From Natrarchaeobius chitinivorans (lineage in GTDB: Archaea; Halobacteriota; Halobacteria; Halobacteriales; Natrialbaceae): a DNA stretch of 64,000 nt. Under the pieces are notes generated by a model. It saw nothing but the letters and a program-made list of their open reading frames with translations. It ran no database searches and was not told the DNA's origin. Of the stretch, positions 53,153 to 64,000 are shown in pieces (position 1 is the stretch's first letter; each line of letters opens with the position of its first letter). The stretch is taken from assembly GCF_003841505.1 (NCBI RefSeq), contig NZ_REGA01000023.1, positions 1 to 64,000 on the forward strand, in the 5' to 3' direction. Position numbers and translations under genes: made by a program.

Positions 53153-54019
53153 ATGTCTAGTAAGAATTCAGTCAGTAAGGTCGTTTCGGTCGATGAACAG
53201 GCATACGAACAGGCGGACACTCGAGCGGAGCGCGACCCCGATGCGGAGTACGCCGTCGACGAAACCCCGGAGTTCCGGGCAACAGTCGAGATGGAGATCC
53301 AGGCAAAGGTGGATGCGAACCACCCTGACGGAATCGTCGATACGAGCGATGAACGAATCCATGGCGCGACCCTGGCCCAGGAAGAACGCATTCGAGCCAG
53401 AGAAGACGAGCTCGAGCGCATCAGTGCCCAGGCCGAGTTCGGTCAGCAGAAGGGACGGGCACGACGAACTCGGAAGACAATCAAGTCGGTGCGTCGTGAA
53501 CAGCGGCGGTCAGAACGGCGGATCGATCCCCGTGAAACGCTCGAGCGCGAGCAGTTAGCAGCGGTCAATCAGCAGGCACAGCGGTTGGCCGACGATGTCC
53601 AAGGTGGCTACAGTCAGGCAGTCATCGCAAAGCGGATCGCGAGTCGCGTCCTCGAGAGAACGGAGTTGTTCGAGGCTGTGATGGAGACGAAAGAAGAGCT
53701 GCTCCACGAAGCAGGGACGATCGTCCCGATCGGCAAACTCGAGGAGATCAATCGTGGCGAGGTCAGTGTCGAGGGTCGCGTAATCGAACTGTGGGACGCC
53801 TCGAATCCGGCGATTCAGCAGGTTGGGTTGATCGAAGACGATAGCGGGAAGACAAAGCTGACGAGTTGGGAGGCCTCTCAGGCACCGTGGATCGAAGAAG
53901 GCGAGTACCTGCGCATTCGCGGGGCAGCGAAAAACTGGTACCAGGGACGCGTCTCACTGGCAATCACCGGGTGGACTACGATCTACTTCCCGGATCGCGG
54001 CCGCTGGTGGGAAGCGTAG
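53153..54019 (+). CDS. OB-fold single-stranded DNA-binding (RPA-like) protein
   Basis: 288 residues. The N-terminal half is charged and helical, with a coiled-coil-like stretch (ARTLAQEERIRAREDELERI-type region about 80-130). The C-terminal 100 residues form an OB fold: VSVEGRVIELWDASNPAIQQVGLIEDDSGKTKLTSWE, then RIRGAAKNWYQGRVSLAITGWTTIYFP. This fits haloarchaeal plasmid RPA-like DNA-binding proteins. A C-terminal fragment of a relative is at 57976-58125. Position near the origin suggests a role in replication or repair. Confidence 0.75.
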   Translation: MSSKNSVSKVVSVDEQAYEQADTRAERDPDAEYAVDETPEFRATVEMEIQAKVDANHPDGIVDTSDERIHGATLAQEERIRAREDELERISAQAEFGQQKGRARRTRKTIKSVRREQRRSERRIDPRETLEREQLAAVNQQAQRLADDVQGGYSQAVIAKRIASRVLERTELFEAVMETKEELLHEAGTIVPIGKLEEINRGEVSVEGRVIELWDASNPAIQQVGLIEDDSGKTKLTSWEASQAPWIEEGEYLRIRGAAKNWYQGRVSLAITGWTTIYFPDRGRWWEA

Positions 54020-54234: not shown

Positions 54235-55206
54235 ATGCAACAAATGACATATGACGCCGATTTTATCTGTGATGTTTGCGGAGACCGCTTTGAGACAAAG
54301 AATGCATTAGGAGGTCACGTCAGTGGACATCGTCGTAGAATATCAGACAAACAGTTACTGGCTGAACTTGAGCGTCTCGGCGATGAGTTGAGTCGTTCAC
54401 CAACAATCAGTGAGATGGACGAATTGGGGGCCTACGCAGCAGGTACATACAAAGACCATTTTAACAGCTGGACAAACGCGCTCCAGTTGGTGGGGTATGA
54501 ACCAATCCAAAAATATCGTGTTTCCAAAGAAGCAATCCTTGACGATATAGCCAGCTTAGCAGATGCACTCGGGAAGCCACCGACGGCTTCTGAAATGCGA
54601 TCGAAAGGAAAGTATTCGGTTAAACTCGCCCAGAACCATTTTGGTAGTTGGAATAAAGCGTTGCAAGCCGCCGGATACGACCCTCACCATCGGCATCGAA
54701 TCTCCGATGAGGCATTATTTGAAGAAATTCGTCGGCTTGTCGACGAGTTAGACAAAGTACCGACTGCCCAAGAGATGAGGGATCACGGCCAATATTCGCA
54801 CCGTCCCTATTTCCGGCGGTGGGACAGTTGGCAGGCTGCTATTCAAGCAGCAGAGTACGAACCAGTCGGTTACCCCTCTGGTCCAGAGAATCATAAATGG
54901 AAAGAACAATCGGCACATGAATGGCGTGGGTACGGTGATAACTGGAGGGTGCAACGGTTGAAGGCCCTCAAACACGACGATTTTACCTGTCAAACGCCCG
55001 GATGCGAGAGGACCCAGAAAGAACACCGTGAAGAATTTGGGGTAGGTCTCAACATTCATCATATTCGGCCTCTCAGTACGTTTGGTGAAACCGAAAGCGA
55101 AGTCGACTTTGAGCGAGCTAATCAGTTAGATAACCTTGTAACGGTCTGTGTTGAACACCATTACCTATGGGAACGCGCCTCACCGCTTCGGTTAGATACG
55201 CGGTAA
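54235..55206 (+). CDS. HNH endonuclease with zinc finger and homing-endonuclease-associated repeats
   Basis: 323 residues (start at 54235 or the ATG at 54244). Domain order: a C2H2-like finger CDVCGDRFETKNALGGHVSGH (about 12-33), then three homing-endonuclease-associated repeats of about 60 residues, each with PT-EM...G-Y...F-SW-ALQ-AGY (for example PPTASEMRSKGKYSVKL; HFGSWNKALQAAGYDP), and a C-terminal HNH nuclease (LNIHHIRPLSTFGE; NLVTVCVEHHYLWE; zinc Cys in CQTPGCERT). Lower GC than its neighbours and a different codon feel suggest recent acquisition. Could act as a free-standing homing or phage-derived nuclease. Confidence 0.85.
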   Translation: MQQMTYDADFICDVCGDRFETKNALGGHVSGHRRRISDKQLLAELERLGDELSRSPTISEMDELGAYAAGTYKDHFNSWTNALQLVGYEPIQKYRVSKEAILDDIASLADALGKPPTASEMRSKGKYSVKLAQNHFGSWNKALQAAGYDPHHRHRISDEALFEEIRRLVDELDKVPTAQEMRDHGQYSHRPYFRRWDSWQAAIQAAEYEPVGYPSGPENHKWKEQSAHEWRGYGDNWRVQRLKALKHDDFTCQTPGCERTQKEHREEFGVGLNIHHIRPLSTFGETESEVDFERANQLDNLVTVCVEHHYLWERASPLRLDTR

Positions 55207-56334: not shown

Positions 56335-56834
56335 TCGTGGCTCCTCCGTGCGTGTCGCCAGTGGCGACAGAGGGAGTCCCCACGTCGGAGCCGGCATAAA
56401 GCGTGTGAACAGGTTCGAATCGAACTGAAGTAGCGGCCGGGCCAGGGCTGTGACTGATCGATGGCGATACTCAACCGTCGTGCGAGACCTTTTTGTCTCG
56501 GTAGCAGTAACGAAAGCATGGCAGCCAAACATACCGCGTTTGGAAGCCACCGTCTCGGGTGTTGCCGCACCCGGGGCATTTCAATACGCATGCCCCCGCG
56601 TCCGCTGTTTTGGAGCGCGATGGCTTCCATCTCGTTAATTGTAGTCTACAATAATATAATTTCTGGTGTGGAGTTAATGGAATCGATCGTTTGAAAACCA
56701 GCTGGCGTACCAGTCACCTACAACCGTCACTATCGATCGGATCGCGGCTTCACAGCTGCTTATTTACGGCGTGTTTTTCTGACCGTCATGGGTGCCGGTC
56801 GTCTCGAGTTCGACTCGAGAGACGTGAATCGATT
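56335..56834. other. Region without a recognised gene
   Basis: About 500 bases ahead of the ArdC-like gene. An AT-rich stretch at 56636-56670 (TTAATTGTAGTCTACAATAATATAATTT, containing the palindrome TTGTAGTCTACAA) could be promoter or operator sequence. No coding frame with haloarchaeal character. Confidence 0.4.
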
Positions 56835-57770
56835 ATGGCTACCAGCAGCAGCACCCGGGAAACGTTCGACGATTCGGATACCCGGCACGACGAGATGCAT
56901 AGTACGATCGAAGCATGGCTTGGAGACCTCGTCGAGGAGGTTGACGACGCCGTTTCGAGCGAGCAATTCAAAGAGTGGCTCGACGTCCAGAGCCGGTTCC
57001 ACGACTACTCGCACCGGAACACGTTGTTGATCAAGCTGCAGTGTCCGCACGCGACCAAGGTCGCCGGTTACCGAACGTGGCAAAACGAATTCGACCGGCA
57101 TGTGAAAGAGGGCGAGAAGGCAATCTGGATCTGGGCACCGATCATCGCGAGACAGTGCCCTGAATGCGGAAACTCACCATCGTATCACGAGCGGAGTGAC
57201 TGCGAATACGACGATACTGAACCCGACGAGTGGGACAAAGGGCTCGTCGGCTTTCGACCAGCGCCGGTCTTCGATGTGTCGCAGACTGAGGGAGAGCCAC
57301 TCCCGGAACTCGAGACCCAAGCACTCGGTAACGTCGACGGGCTGCTTCCAGCACTCCTCGAGACAGCGTCGGAACTCGGGGTAGCTGTCGACATCGTCCC
57401 TCCTCAGGAATGGTCTCACGGCAGCGCCAAGGGTGTCTGTCAGTATCGGCTGGGGACACAGCCACTCGTGAAAGTCCGTGATCGTGAAAGCGAGGCTGAT
57501 CTCGCCGTCACACTCGTTCATGAGTACGCTCACGCACTGTTGCACGGTGGCATCGATACCGAAGACGAACGATCGAAGCGCGAACTCGAGGCCGAAGCTG
57601 TCGGCTATATCGTCGGTCGATATTTCGGATTAGACACGAGTGGGTCAGCGTTCTACCTCGCTGCGTGGGAGGGGGACGAACCGGAGACGCTCCTCGATCG
57701 ACTCGAGCGCATTAGTTCGACGTCTCAGGAGATCATCGACGCCGTCGAAGAGGTGATGAGCGATGAGTGA
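56835..57770 (+). CDS. ArdC-like protein with ssDNA-binding and metallopeptidase domains
   Basis: 311 residues from ATG 56835 (MATSSSTRETF). The N-terminal ArdC/DUF1738 domain shows WLDVQSRFHDYSHRNTLLI, VAGYRTWQNEFDRHVKEGEKAIWIWAPI, with a four-cysteine insertion (CPECGNSPSYHERSDC). The C-terminal domain is an ImmA/IrrE-like peptidase with LVHEYAHALLHGG and the third ligand in ELEAEAVGYIVGRYFGLDT. ArdC proteins protect incoming plasmid DNA from restriction. A broken copy is at 45188-45566. It overlaps the HalOD1 gene that follows. Confidence 0.88.
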   Translation: MATSSSTRETFDDSDTRHDEMHSTIEAWLGDLVEEVDDAVSSEQFKEWLDVQSRFHDYSHRNTLLIKLQCPHATKVAGYRTWQNEFDRHVKEGEKAIWIWAPIIARQCPECGNSPSYHERSDCEYDDTEPDEWDKGLVGFRPAPVFDVSQTEGEPLPELETQALGNVDGLLPALLETASELGVAVDIVPPQEWSHGSAKGVCQYRLGTQPLVKVRDRESEADLAVTLVHEYAHALLHGGIDTEDERSKRELEAEAVGYIVGRYFGLDTSGSAFYLAAWEGDEPETLLDRLERISSTSQEIIDAVEEVMSDE

Positions 57771-59297: not shown

Positions 59298-59705
59298 TTA
59301 CAGGTAGTAGTCCTCGCGTTCGATAACCTCAGCGAAGGCAACGGTTTCTTTGACATCTGTGATTTCGATGGTCACCCGTTCACCCTTCTCCGTATCGGGG
59401 ACGATGATCACATATCCTCGCTCGACACGAGCAACGCCATCACCTTGCTCTCCGATATCTCCAATGTCTACAGTTCGGGTTTCGTTTTCCTCAACAGGTG
59501 GCTCTGGAATGCCCACCTCTCGTCTCTGTGTGATATCCTCGTCAGGTGTAGATTTTGTTTCAAGCAGTGCAACGTGGTATACTTCTCCCTCTTGGAGATT
59601 TCCGGTTGCAATCTCAGAGTCGGGAATTTCGATAACGTAAGAATTGCGTTGTTCTGTCACGCCAGCACTGAACAGACATAGTAGGTTGTCGGGAATCTGT
59701 ATCAT
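59298..59705 (-). CDS. TRAM-domain protein
   Basis: 135 residues. The C-terminal 70 form a TRAM domain (RTVDIGDIGEQGDGVARVERGYVIIVPDTEKGERVTIEITDVKETVAFAEVI in overlapping motifs), an OB-like RNA-binding fold common in haloarchaeal small proteins, where it may act as an RNA chaperone. The N-terminal 60 residues are a second beta-rich segment (YVIEIPDSEIATGNLQEGEVYHVAL). It is convergent with the TFB gene. Confidence 0.88.
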   Translation of the reverse strand: MIQIPDNLLCLFSAGVTEQRNSYVIEIPDSEIATGNLQEGEVYHVALLETKSTPDEDITQRREVGIPEPPVEENETRTVDIGDIGEQGDGVARVERGYVIIVPDTEKGERVTIEITDVKETVAFAEVIEREDYYL

Positions 59706-60211
59706 TATCGTTCCTTCTCAAAACAGTGTCTTGATACCCCCTTGAGACCATCGGTGACACAATTTTTGATTGAGCCGTGTCTCTGTCCCAGATGCCCGCT
59801 GCACGTCGTGTTTTTTAGAGCCGCTGGTGGCCAGTGGTCTTCTCGAATTAGTCTCAACAAGATCCTGGGTTCTCCGGAAATTGGGTAGACCAATGGTACA
59901 AAGAAAGGTGCGGACAAACTCATCGTGCGTGGCTACGTCGTCCTCGATACGAGCGACGTAGCGACACGTCGACTTCGTGAGTTGGGTGTTGATGATGAGA
60001 CGCCGATCGACCTTCCGTCAACGTTCGATGTCGGGGATCAAGCTGAAGCAGAAGGCGTGTGACTGGCTATCATCGAATCGACAACGTGCCATCTGGATGC
60101 ACGACCTGTACCTAGTGTTACTGCACGAAGCAGTTCACGAGACCTCGAGGTTCATCCACGGATACGTCACGCCCAAGGATTTATTATACCGAAATGGATT
60201 GGATTCCATAT
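59706..60211. other. Interval with a short gene relic
   Basis: At 59893-60062 the plus strand reads KKGADKLIVRGYVVLDTSDVATRRLRELG and ends with FDVGDQAEAEGV before a TGA, the C-terminal part of an acidic haloarchaeal protein with no start. I do not recognise the family. The remainder is not coding. A TATA-like TTTATTATACC lies at 60180-60190, about 25 bases before the ATG at 60212. Confidence 0.45.
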
Positions 60212-60838
60212 ATGTCTGAAAACCAGAAACCTTTCGCCTCAGCTGGGGCAGGGATCACATTGGGGCTCGCGCTTGCCGCCGTGATTGTCAGTGTCGTTGT
60301 CCAGCCGGAAGCGATTCCGTTGAGTGAGAAGTTCCAGTACGTCTTCGCCGCACTCTTCTTAGGGATGTCTATCGGTCACTACCTCGGAGAGGCCTTGATT
60401 GATGGCGGAGAAGACAAGAAATACGCGTTAGTCGGCCTCTTCTCCACGCTGGGAGTATTGTTCGTGGTCTTCCTAGTGCTCGGGCGGGGACTCACCCCAT
60501 TCGCCGCCGGCATCGGTGGTACACTCGGGTTCTTCGCCCTATGCCTGATCCTCAGCCATCATTCCGGGTTGATCGCTGACAGTGAGCGTCTCGATGTGCT
60601 CGTTGGTGAGTTCGCGGGGAAGATATCTCCCAGCGGGCTGGCGTTCATTATCGTGGCGTTCGTCGCAGATATGGCGTTCAGCCAAGAAGTGGCTGAAGCG
60701 ATGGCGGAAGTTGCTATCTATGCGGTTGCAATCCTGCTTGCCTTCTACATCTTGAAGTTCCGGGAACCTATCCTTGCCGAGATCAAGCCGCTTCTGGAGG
60801 AACTGAAAGGTTCTGATACCAGTAAGCGATCGCGGTGA
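60212..60838 (+). CDS. Multi-pass membrane protein of unknown function
   Basis: 208 residues from ATG 60212 (MSENQKPFASAG), supported by a TATA-like box 25 bases ahead. About six hydrophobic helices (ITLGLALAAVIVSVVV; YVFAALFLGMSIGHYL; YALVGLFSTLGVLFVVFLVLG; GGTLGFFALCLIL; LAFIIVAFVADMAF; IYAVAILLAFYIL) with a charged C-terminus. No family recognised. Convergent with the RecB-like nuclease gene 20 bases away. Confidence 0.7.
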   Translation: MSENQKPFASAGAGITLGLALAAVIVSVVVQPEAIPLSEKFQYVFAALFLGMSIGHYLGEALIDGGEDKKYALVGLFSTLGVLFVVFLVLGRGLTPFAAGIGGTLGFFALCLILSHHSGLIADSERLDVLVGEFAGKISPSGLAFIIVAFVADMAFSQEVAEAMAEVAIYAVAILLAFYILKFREPILAEIKPLLEELKGSDTSKRSR

Positions 60839-60857: not shown

Positions 60858-61841
60858 TTAGAAGTCAAACAAGCTTGTCTGGCCCTCGAAATCGTACTGC
60901 TCGGTCAGGACCTCCCGGTACGGATCATAATTCCGGCGGCCATCATGGTTCTCATCGATCGCCCGGTCCACGAACCATGCACGGAACCGTTCGTACTCGT
61001 CTCGCGGCTGTAGATACTCGTCCACGTCGATGGTCTGGAGTTCACCGAACCGGGCAAAGTAGACACCAACACTCGTAAGGTCAGGATACGGTACGTCTGC
61101 ACTGCGACTGTCGACCTCTGCAGCGACCAGCTCCCGGTGAATATCGTTGAGCACATAATAGGCGAGCAGCTGCCGCCAGTACTCAGGCTTGAACGCCGGG
61201 TCTTCAGTGGTCTTCACATCTATCAAGGTCTGGTCTACGATGAAATCTCCATGGCCCTCAAGGATAAACGACCGCTGCCCAAAATCCGGGCTGAGGATCA
61301 CTGAGTCACCGAGCAATGTGTCCTGTTCCCGGAACAAATGAAACAGGTCCTGTAACTCCGAGACGACATCGTCCTCGAACGAGTTTGCTTCTATCGTCCC
61401 GTCCTCGAACCCAACGTTGAGGTCAAGCCCGGAATACACGAGGGCGGCATCAATCACATCATTCGCGTTCATCCCGGTTTCCCGAAACTGCTCATGTTTT
61501 TTCTTAGCCCGCTCCAGCGCGGTGTTACGGGGTTCCCGATCATCTGACCCTGATTCACCCGGTTGTTCCCAAGCAGGTGTAAAGTGGGACCGTGTATATT
61601 CGAGAGCATGTGTCCAGTCACGATCCAACCGACCAGTGTGCGGGTCGTGCACCTCACTGTGCTGGTGTTCCAGCCAGAACCGGATCAGGTAGTCGAAGGC
61701 CTGTCCGAGCAGCGAGTGTTCATACGAGACATGTATCACCTGTAACTCGGCGTCCACATCTGCCCCTGGATTCGGATACTCCGTGGAGATCTTGTCCCGG
61801 ACCGCGTTTTTCGCAATGAATTTGGTAACCCCGATACCCAT
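60858..61841 (-). CDS. RecB-like PD-(D/E)XK nuclease
   Basis: 327 residues. The C-terminal half carries the RecB/Cas4-type site: FILEGHGDFIVDQTLIDVKTTEDPAFKPEYWRQLLAYYVL, with GxxD, the DVK pair and the QLLAYY motif. The N-terminal half is acidic and helical (YEHSLLGQAFDYLIRFWLEHQ). No iron-sulphur cysteine cluster is visible, unlike Cas4. It is a lone nuclease divergent from the S10-like gene; a defence or plasmid-maintenance role is inference. Confidence 0.8.
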   Translation of the reverse strand: MGIGVTKFIAKNAVRDKISTEYPNPGADVDAELQVIHVSYEHSLLGQAFDYLIRFWLEHQHSEVHDPHTGRLDRDWTHALEYTRSHFTPAWEQPGESGSDDREPRNTALERAKKKHEQFRETGMNANDVIDAALVYSGLDLNVGFEDGTIEANSFEDDVVSELQDLFHLFREQDTLLGDSVILSPDFGQRSFILEGHGDFIVDQTLIDVKTTEDPAFKPEYWRQLLAYYVLNDIHRELVAAEVDSRSADVPYPDLTSVGVYFARFGELQTIDVDEYLQPRDEYERFRAWFVDRAIDENHDGRRNYDPYREVLTEQYDFEGQTSLFDF

Positions 61842-61959: not shown

Positions 61960-62430
61960 ATGGACAGAGTCCACCTGATGGCGTTCAGTTTGGACCGGGA
62001 TGCTCTTCTCGATTACAGTAGAGAAATCCAATCCATCTGTGACCGAAAAAGCGTGGACTACAAAGGCCCCAGTCCGCTGCCAGTGTTCAAATTCCAAGGT
62101 CCGCTAACCGATATCGCACCGAAGGATTGGCTGGAAGAGACTCCGCACTGGGTGCGAGAACTCGGGATGGATGAAAGCGATTTTTCGCGGCTTCAGTCGT
62201 TCGAACAGGCAGATGACTTGACGAGTCTTGCATTGTTCTGCCGCCAGTTCGAGGTCTATGATAGTGGTACGGTGCAGGAGGCGGTGGCACTTCCACTGCC
62301 GGAGACGGTGTGCTTGCACGTAAACGTGGACACGATCGAGCATCACACCGGTGGAGAGCATTCGCCGTACACGTACGATCCCGGCCGTGAACATGTGACC
62401 GATCTTGATTTTGAGGCCCACCACTCCTAA
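61960..62430 (+). CDS. Ribosomal-protein-S10-like protein
   Basis: 156 residues from ATG 61960 (MDRVHLMAFSLDRD). The N-terminal 85 residues follow the S10 fold: a strand RVHLMAFS, a helix ALLDYSREIQSICDRKSVDY, the KGPSPLPVFKF loop (S10 has RGPIPLPT), then a strand and a helix with a WVRELGMDESDF segment. The C-terminal 70 residues are unrelated (VQEAVALPLPETVCLHVNVDT). Some haloarchaeal proteins are annotated as uS10/mL48-like outside ribosomal operons. S10/NusE also functions in transcription antitermination, so an RNA- or polymerase-linked role is possible. The next gene is an Mrr-like nuclease. Confidence 0.55.
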   Translation: MDRVHLMAFSLDRDALLDYSREIQSICDRKSVDYKGPSPLPVFKFQGPLTDIAPKDWLEETPHWVRELGMDESDFSRLQSFEQADDLTSLALFCRQFEVYDSGTVQEAVALPLPETVCLHVNVDTIEHHTGGEHSPYTYDPGREHVTDLDFEAHHS

Positions 62431-62544
62431 GCGGGGCGTATCCCTGGAATCTGTGTTGAGCCGGAGGGACTGATGAAGATCACTGTCAAAATATTCGATC
62501 TGTATTGGTCCGCGGAAACGTTCTTTTGTGAGCCATCCCATATC

Positions 62545-63429
62545 ATGGCAATGGACGAGGACAAGGCGGATCGCCTCTATGAGACAGTGGAAAGCGCCGA
62601 GAAGCTGAGGTCAACTCTCTACGAGGAGGTCACTGCGACGATCCTCGAAGACAAACTCAAGCATCTTCCCGACGCCCATACCGTAACACACGACCACGAT
62701 CTCCGGTGTGATTTCGGAGAGAAGCAGATGGATGTGGTTCTCGAGGTCGGTGACGGCGAAGACGCGGTCATGGTTATCGTTGAATGCAAAGGACGGGGAA
62801 GGCCGATGAAGAAGGATCACCTGGCGAGTTTCGCCTTCTACGTAGAACACTCCGACGCCGACAAAGGCATCTACGTCTCCCGCAGCGGGTTCCAGCGCGG
62901 AGCGGAGCAGATTGCCGCCGCATGCGATATCCAACTTTTTGAGATCACGCTTCTTGGAGAGCCCAACATAAAACACGTCGAGGGTAAGATCACGTCTAAT
63001 CCCAGTCCATACTACCGCCATCAGATTGGGGTGATCCATGTTGAGGACGGGACTCCGGCGAATCTCTCCAATCTCACCTCTACGTTCCACGAGAAACGGC
63101 AACTGGATATCCGGGATGAATTGGGTGGTCCGACAGGGGAAACGTTAGCGGATCGGTTGCCTGACGAGTCTGGAGAAGACATGGAGGCGATCACAACCAC
63201 ATTCGAGAACGGAGAACGGGTGCGAGTTGATGGCGAGGAATATGAGCTACACTATGCAATGTCAGTCCCGCAGGGAGGAGACAGTGAAGACGGTGAAGGG
63301 GACAGTTTCGAGATCGATTTCGAGGACCGGGTTGATCTTCACCTGAGAGATGTGCTTGCTGATCAGGACGAGTACATGGTGTTCGACGATATCAAGGACC
63401 AGTTCATTGACGTGGAGAACGGCGATTGA
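62545..63429 (+). CDS. Mrr-like PD-(D/E)XK endonuclease
   Basis: About 294 residues from ATG 62545 (MAMDEDKADRLYE); the frame extends back to 62473 but the added part is less typical. The catalytic motif is QMDVVLEV...VMVIVECKGRGRPMKKDH, i.e. D...ExK, followed by FAFYVEHSDADKGIYVSRSGFQRGAEQIA, as in Mrr-type restriction enzymes. The C-terminus is acidic. Mrr enzymes cut modified DNA; there is no methylase beside it. It follows the S10-like gene on the same strand and is convergent with a membrane-protein gene. Confidence 0.75.
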   Translation: MAMDEDKADRLYETVESAEKLRSTLYEEVTATILEDKLKHLPDAHTVTHDHDLRCDFGEKQMDVVLEVGDGEDAVMVIVECKGRGRPMKKDHLASFAFYVEHSDADKGIYVSRSGFQRGAEQIAAACDIQLFEITLLGEPNIKHVEGKITSNPSPYYRHQIGVIHVEDGTPANLSNLTSTFHEKRQLDIRDELGGPTGETLADRLPDESGEDMEAITTTFENGERVRVDGEEYELHYAMSVPQGGDSEDGEGDSFEIDFEDRVDLHLRDVLADQDEYMVFDDIKDQFIDVENGD

Positions 63430-63430
63430 T

Positions 63431-64000
63431 TCACCAGAATACGATGCCCGTCCGCTCCACCTCATAGATAATCGCCACTGCTACCAACATCAATATCGGC
63501 AACAAATCATGCCGCGCCCCACTCACATCCTTGAACGACGCGTTCCCATACCGCGACAAAATAAACTGCAGAAATCCTTGCATCGGTAACGCTGCGACCG
63601 CCAATGACACCGCTAGTATTCCGGTATGGAACAGCGAACTTCCCGTCACCACATACAGGACCGGCACCGCCACCACCGCACCCAGTAACACGACAGCCAC
63701 CGTTGCGATCAACACGACCAACGCTGTCACGGTCTGCGCCCGTTGTGACCGGATATCCGCTCCCTGAAATCGGACTTTACGTACCGAAAGATGCTCGATC
63801 CCGTACTTTTCGTAATGCGGGGACAGCTGATGTACCCATGCTGCGACAGCCAGCAAACCTCGATTGAAGGCGCTGGATTCGTCTTGCAGCCCAAGATTAT
63901 GGAACGTTACCGCCATCCAGAAGAAGAGATCCCCAACCATCCACTCGTACAGAAGCATACTCGCGAACAGAAACGAGAAGACACCGGCCGCCCACAACGC
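63431..64000 (-). CDS. Membrane protein, cut by the window edge
   Basis: At least 188 residues, reading in from the window end. Hydrophobic helices: GVFSFLFASMLLYEWMVGDLFFW; TVTALVVLIATVAVVLLGAVVAVPVLYVV; TGILAVSLAVAALPMQ; PILMLVAVAIIYEV. The start is outside the window. No family recognised. One base separates its stop from the Mrr-like gene stop. Confidence 0.65.
   Translation of the reverse strand, partial: ALWAAGVFSFLFASMLLYEWMVGDLFFWMAVTFHNLGLQDESSAFNRGLLAVAAWVHQLSPHYEKYGIEHLSVRKVRFQGADIRSQRAQTVTALVVLIATVAVVLLGAVVAVPVLYVVTGSSLFHTGILAVSLAVAALPMQGFLQFILSRYGNASFKDVSGARHDLLPILMLVAVAIIYEVERTGIVFW

What the first reader, a model, noticed from the sequence alone, without database searches (positions are those of the whole stretch)
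61960..63429. S10-like protein next to an Mrr-like endonuclease, with a RecB-like nuclease and two membrane proteins
The S10 fold signature (strand, helix, G-P-x-P-L-P loop) appears in a non-ribosomal protein beside a PD-(D/E)XK nuclease on the same strand. The cluster also has a RecB-like nuclease and membrane proteins of unknown family. It looks like a defence or plasmid-conflict island with an RNA/transcription-linked component.
Basis: partly seen in the sequence, partly recalled or inferred. Interest (0 to 1): 0.65.

Follow-up and report, generated by a model that had tools for sequence, protein, structure and literature searches.

The report
Mobile ribosomal-S10-like protein near defence genes
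On a salt-loving archaeon's plasmid-like DNA there is a gene for a protein with the fold of ribosomal protein S10 plus a unique conserved tail; it belongs to a rare third S10 family that moves between genomes and often sits beside antiviral gene systems, so a ribosome part may have been reused outside the ribosome, although nobody has tested that.

Summary
The ORF at 61960-62430 (156 aa) is a genuine, full-length S10-fold protein. One-sequence profiles give only a marginal match (Pfam E 0.036), but a family profile matches archaeal uS10 (E 4e-8), profile-profile comparison confirms it, and the AlphaFold2 model aligns to uS10 at Z 10.8. It is neither of the two S10 proteins every haloarchaeon carries (canonical uS10 and its unexplained paralogue Rps10b, both present in this genome). 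It belongs to a third, rare family: 12 loci found, 8 intact, 4 decayed or truncated. Members have lost the loop signature of uS10 and share a strict C-terminal tail, P-x-[TS]-[YW]-D-P. A DNA pattern for the tail hit 5 of 391 haloarchaeal genomes, all five this family. The pairing with Mrr is not conserved. However, other members lie next to Dnd-Pbe, DISARM, a type IIG restriction enzyme, a DpdJ-like helicase cluster and a UvrD-nuclease. The defence association is suggestive (0 of 150 random genes match PADLOC below 1e-50, against 4 flanking genes), but the threshold was chosen afterwards. Best guess: a standalone S10 mimic that binds an S10 partner (perhaps Spt5) and the tail's unknown target. 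Mechanism untested.

The parts
61960..62430 (+). S10-like protein (third haloarchaeal S10-fold family), 156 aa, ATG start
61960..62097 (+). first S10 half: strand, helix, strand, with G-P-S-P-L-P at 62065-62082
   Evidence: AlphaFold2 secondary structure; alignment with uS10 and Rps10b
62098..62223 (+). insert in place of the uS10 loop; variable in length and sequence in the family, low-confidence helices in the model
62224..62334 (+). second S10 half: strand with the conserved Arg, helix, strand
62365..62403 (+). C-terminal tail motif PYTYDPGREHVTD, family-specific, predicted disordered
   Evidence: tail DNA pattern hits only this family
62473..63429 (+). Mrr-like restriction endonuclease (PD-(D/E)XK), 42 bases downstream on the same strand; not linked to S10-like genes elsewhere
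   Evidence: Pfam Mrr_cat 3.5e-7; no counterpart in other neighbourhoods
60858..61841 (-). RecB/Cas4-like PD-(D/E)XK nuclease, divergent from the S10-like gene
   Evidence: PADLOC RTasPDDEXK 2.6e-9, PDC-S61 2.8e-7; phrog_34041 6.8e-19; relatives on haloarchaeal and bacterial plasmids
60194..60838 (+). membrane protein, about 4 hydrophobic segments, no known family
63431..64000 (-). membrane protein, no known family; the complete gene runs to 64438 on the contig (335 aa)

Best explanation
What it is: a member of a third, rare, mobile family of S10-fold proteins of Halobacteria, separate from canonical uS10 and from the universal paralogue Rps10b. How it most likely works (inferred): it is not a ribosomal subunit. 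It keeps the S10 core, the part through which uS10 can bind proteins such as NusG/Spt5, has lost the uS10 loop signature, and carries a conserved disordered tail as a docking peptide. It would act as a free S10 mimic that binds an S10 partner, for example the Spt5 KOW domain or a 30S-head component, and brings it to, or competes with it for, the tail's target. I think this serves as a standalone accessory gene of defence islands, sensing or throttling gene expression during infection, rather than as a subunit of one system. Shown: fold, separate family, tail, patchy distribution and decay, neighbourhoods. Inferred: non-ribosomal role, partner binding, defence role.
For: Fold. Separate family, one side of a branch at 99/99 support. 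Host genome has its own canonical uS10 and Rps10b. The uS10 loop motif (P-T-K ... W ... HKR) and the Trp that Rps10b keeps are absent; inserts differ between members. Tail conserved in members only 13-50% identical to the window protein, and found only in this family (5 hits in 391 genomes, reversed-pattern control 0). Purifying selection suggested in the closest pair (differences by codon position 59/42/84). Patchy and decaying. Neighbours: Dnd genes and PbeA (G410), DISARM DrmA/B/C plus C5 methylase (G261), type IIG enzyme (G052), DpdJ-like helicase with PLD and STAND-like genes on one strand (G396), UvrD-PD-(D/E)XK (G264), Mrr (window). Random genes from the same replicons: none below 1e-40 except one at 1.1e-40; 4 of 22 flanking genes against 0 of 150 below 1e-50, p 2e-4. 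Precedent for S10 binding NusG/Spt5: PMC10931766, PMC7289017.
Against: No function has been measured. The defence test is post hoc: at 1e-20, where the random genes also hit PADLOC, 5 of 12 loci against 5 to 10 of 36 windows gives p 0.05 to 0.29, and the control is not fully matched for accessory DNA. At least four loci have no clear defence neighbour (G326, G397, G448, and the stub G265). The G448 copy follows rps2 in a ribosomal-protein operon, which fits a ribosomal role. Orientation relative to defence genes varies (convergent at G410, divergent at G261), so there is no shared operon. Spt5 as partner is only an analogy.
Confidence: 0.42

Rival explanations
1. Cargo of plasmids or viruses: an S10 mimic that serves the mobile element by redirecting host transcription or translation, as phage lambda uses host S10 (NusE). 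Defence genes are near only because both gather in the same islands.
For: Two copies are on annotated plasmids; G000, G397 and G245 share an ArdC/OB-fold backbone; the G265 copy is cut by an IS5-type transposase; GC 0.54 on a contig of 0.55.
Against: No relative in the viral contig collection or in phages; copies also sit beside Dnd-Pbe, DISARM and type IIG genes.
Confidence: 0.28
2. An alternative ribosomal S10: it replaces uS10 in some ribosomes under stress and changes translation.
For: Complete S10 core; one copy directly follows rps2 (G448); S10 duplication is characteristic of haloarchaea (PMC3353972, PMC8305020).
Against: Loop signature and loop Trp lost, insert variable; added conserved tail; rare, mobile and often decayed; host keeps uS10 and Rps10b.
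Confidence: 0.13
3. A two-gene system with the Mrr-like nuclease: the S10-like protein controls or recruits Mrr.
For: Same strand, 42-base gap.
Against: No other locus of the family has this nuclease, and Mrr relatives on plasmids lack the S10-like gene.
Confidence: 0.06
4. Chance resemblance to S10.
For: Single-sequence scores are below family cut-offs.
Against: Family profile, profile-profile comparison, reciprocal genome hits and structure all agree.
Confidence: 0.01

Closest known systems
Haloarchaeal Rps10b (HVO_1392 type), second S10 paralogue
   Same: Full S10 fold; closest profile match (hhalign 98.8%, 5.7e-17); same K-G-x-x-x-x-G-P stretch
   Different: Rps10b is near-universal, about 110 aa, keeps a loop Trp and has no tail; the new family is rare, 137-161 aa, with insert and tail
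Ribosomal protein uS10 / NusE
   Same: Fold, G-P-x-P-L-P turn, conserved Arg in the third strand
   Different: Loop signature lost, below the Pfam cut-off, extra to the host's own uS10
Standalone accessory genes of defence islands
   Same: Patchy, mobile, beside varied defence systems
   Different: No measured defence activity; no known defence gene with an S10 fold was found in PADLOC or in the papers searched
Mrr-type restriction endonucleases (the neighbour)
   Same: Mrr_cat domain over its cut-off, D ... ECK motif
   Different: An ordinary member; not linked to the S10 family elsewhere

Membership tests
Ribosomal protein uS10 | S10 fold | tested here: met
   Z 10.8
Ribosomal protein uS10 | scores above the curated family cut-off | tested here: not met
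   PF00338 14.8 of 21.2 bits; NCBIfam uS10 13.1 of 96
Ribosomal protein uS10 | conserved loop (PLPTK ... W ... HKR) | tested here: not met
Ribosomal protein uS10 | present in nearly every genome | tested here: not met
   intact in 5 of 391 class genomes, whereas PF00338 is over its cut-off in 124 of 125 genomes of the host's family
Ribosomal protein uS10 | part of the 30S subunit | not testable with these tools
   needs ribosome fractionation
Rps10b | groups with Rps10b in a tree | tested here: not met
   family separated from all Rps10b at 99/99, though some branches are long
NusE-type transcription factor | binds NusG/Spt5 or NusB and affects termination | not testable with these tools
   needs binding and transcription assays
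Component of a known defence system | conserved gene set around it | tested here: not met
   neighbours differ at every locus, apart from one RAMP-like block shared by two and a plasmid backbone shared by three
Mrr restriction endonuclease (62473-63429) | Mrr catalytic domain | tested here: met
   Mrr_cat 30.8 bits over 21

The most novel reading that the evidence does not exclude
A ribosomal-protein fold has been turned into a mobile antiviral factor in archaea: the S10 mimic guards or blocks transcription-translation coupling, with the tyrosine-containing tail as its effector or docking signal.
Probability: 0.22. Interest if true: 0.88.

Novelty: new variant of a known kind. Interest (0 to 1): 0.57.

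Why it matters
Haloarchaea are known to carry a second S10 of unknown role (PMC8305020, PMC3353972). A third family that is mobile, non-universal and marked by its own tail gives a testable handle on what S10 folds do outside the ribosome in archaea. If the defence link holds, it would be a case of a core ribosomal fold recruited into immunity.

Tried and rejected
No relative of the S10-like protein in viral contigs (three scans) or phages; genome contigs gave only the Natrinema plasmid. No Rfam family and no tRNA in the window. PDB sequence searches with the Mrr-like and RecB-like proteins: nothing; no relatives of either in viral contigs. G368 looked like a possible member but is Rps10b. Considered the tail as a widespread motif: rejected, the pattern finds only this family. 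G261 and G396 neighbourhood labels rest on PADLOC matches, not on a full system call.

Full report
Setting. The window is part of a 66,331-base contig of a haloarchaeal genome (G000). The contig carries two Cdc6/Orc genes, ArdC and OB-fold genes, a TFB, a TnpB and transposases, so it is plasmid-like. GC is 0.55, 0.54 in the S10-like gene.

The observation. On its own it matches S10 only weakly. I therefore looked for relatives. Plasmid and whole-genome searches gave a Natrinema plasmid protein at 49% identity and more distant ones. A profile from four of these, with no ribosomal S10 in it, hits S10 proteins (Rps10b and/or canonical uS10) in nearly every haloarchaeal genome, for Rps10b over the whole S10 length. 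Profile-profile comparison, PDB sequence search and structure comparison agree. The S10 similarity is real and covers both halves of the fold.

Which S10. Almost every genome of the host's family has two S10 genes: canonical uS10 and the divergent Rps10b (HVO_1392 type), whose place in the ribosome is unknown (PMC8305020; also counted in PMC3353972). G000 has both. The window protein is a third kind. In a tree the eight intact members lie on one side of a 99/99 branch; some of their branches are long, so inner order is unsure. Two features mark them: the uS10 loop signature and its Trp are replaced by an insert of variable length, and the C-terminus ends in a tail P-x-[TS]-[YW]-D-P. A DNA pattern for the tail hit 5 of 391 genomes with no reversed-pattern hits. 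Four were known members. The fifth (G265) is a C-terminal stub directly after an IS5-type transposase. The tail therefore belongs, as far as tested, to this family only, and is conserved where the rest is not.

Distribution. Twelve loci: intact in G000, G397, G281, G326, G410, G052, G448, G245; decayed in G264, G396, G261; truncated in G265. Members lie in at least two haloarchaeal families, with decayed or truncated copies in two more. None was found in viral contigs or phages.

Neighbours. The Mrr-like and RecB-like genes of the window do not recur. What recurs is the type of neighbour. G410: DndA (5e-152), DndE, DndD/PbeC, DndC and PbeA. G261: C5 methylase with DrmA, DrmB and DrmC (DISARM). 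G052: type IIG enzyme 172 bases upstream on the same strand. G396: inside a same-strand run with a DpdJ-like helicase, an MZB-domain helicase, PLD and a STAND-like ATPase. G264: UvrD-PD-(D/E)XK, 90 bases away, same strand. G245 has a weak STAND-like neighbour. G281 has an HNH-repeat gene next to it and an Nmad3 gene further off. G448 is different: the gene follows rps2 in the ribosomal operon. G410 and G261 also share a four-gene block with a weak RAMP match.

Is the defence link more than chance? As a control I took 150 genes from 36 random 5-kb windows of the same replicons: the best PADLOC match was 1.1e-40. Below 1e-50, 4 of 22 flanking genes against 0 of 150 gives p 2e-4, and 4 of 12 loci against 0 of 36 windows gives p 0.0025. 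The threshold was set after seeing the data. At 1e-20, where general helicases also score, the result is not significant (p 0.05 to 0.29), and the control is not fully matched for accessory DNA. I call the association suggestive.

How it might work. In bacteria uS10 binds NusG, linking ribosome and RNA polymerase, and with NusB acts off the ribosome in antitermination (PMC10931766); the archaeal Spt5 KOW domain probably binds S10 too (PMC7289017). A protein with an S10 core, no uS10 loop signature and a conserved disordered tail fits a free S10 mimic: core for the S10 partner, tail for a second partner. Its placement suggests use in conflict with viruses or plasmids. Fold, family, tail and neighbourhoods are shown; partner and purpose are inferred. 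The main rivals are a mobile-element factor unrelated to defence, and an alternative ribosomal S10.

Verdict. The specific pair it proposed is not conserved; the wider picture, a mobile S10-fold family often beside defence genes, is new as far as the papers searched show.

Noticed in passing
L109:2859-8862 (G410) and L010:11399-16311 (G261): A four-gene block (41-69% identity) with a RAMP-superfamily-like protein, a weak Cmr3-like protein and an HNH protein, beside S10-like genes in two distant families; possibly an undescribed RAMP-based system.
   Followed up: partly
L112:7772-9289 (G448): An S10-like gene 199 bases after rps2, in the ribosomal-protein/enolase operon.
   Followed up: partly
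window 54235-55206 (+): Protein with a C2H2 zinc finger, three HNH_repeat copies and a C-terminal HNH nuclease.
   Followed up: no
window 59298-59705 (-): TRAM-domain protein of 135 aa; NCBIfam PyTRAM RNA chaperone is the best match but below its cut-off.
   Followed up: no
L046:1489-1662 (G000:C17) and L047 (G254:C65): A short reading frame with a weak S10 match (E 0.02-0.03), nearly identical in two genera; probably part of a repeat or a dead gene.
   Followed up: no
window 53153-54019 and 56691-57770: OB-fold and ArdC-like genes shared with two other loci of the family (G397, G245): a common plasmid backbone.
   Followed up: partly
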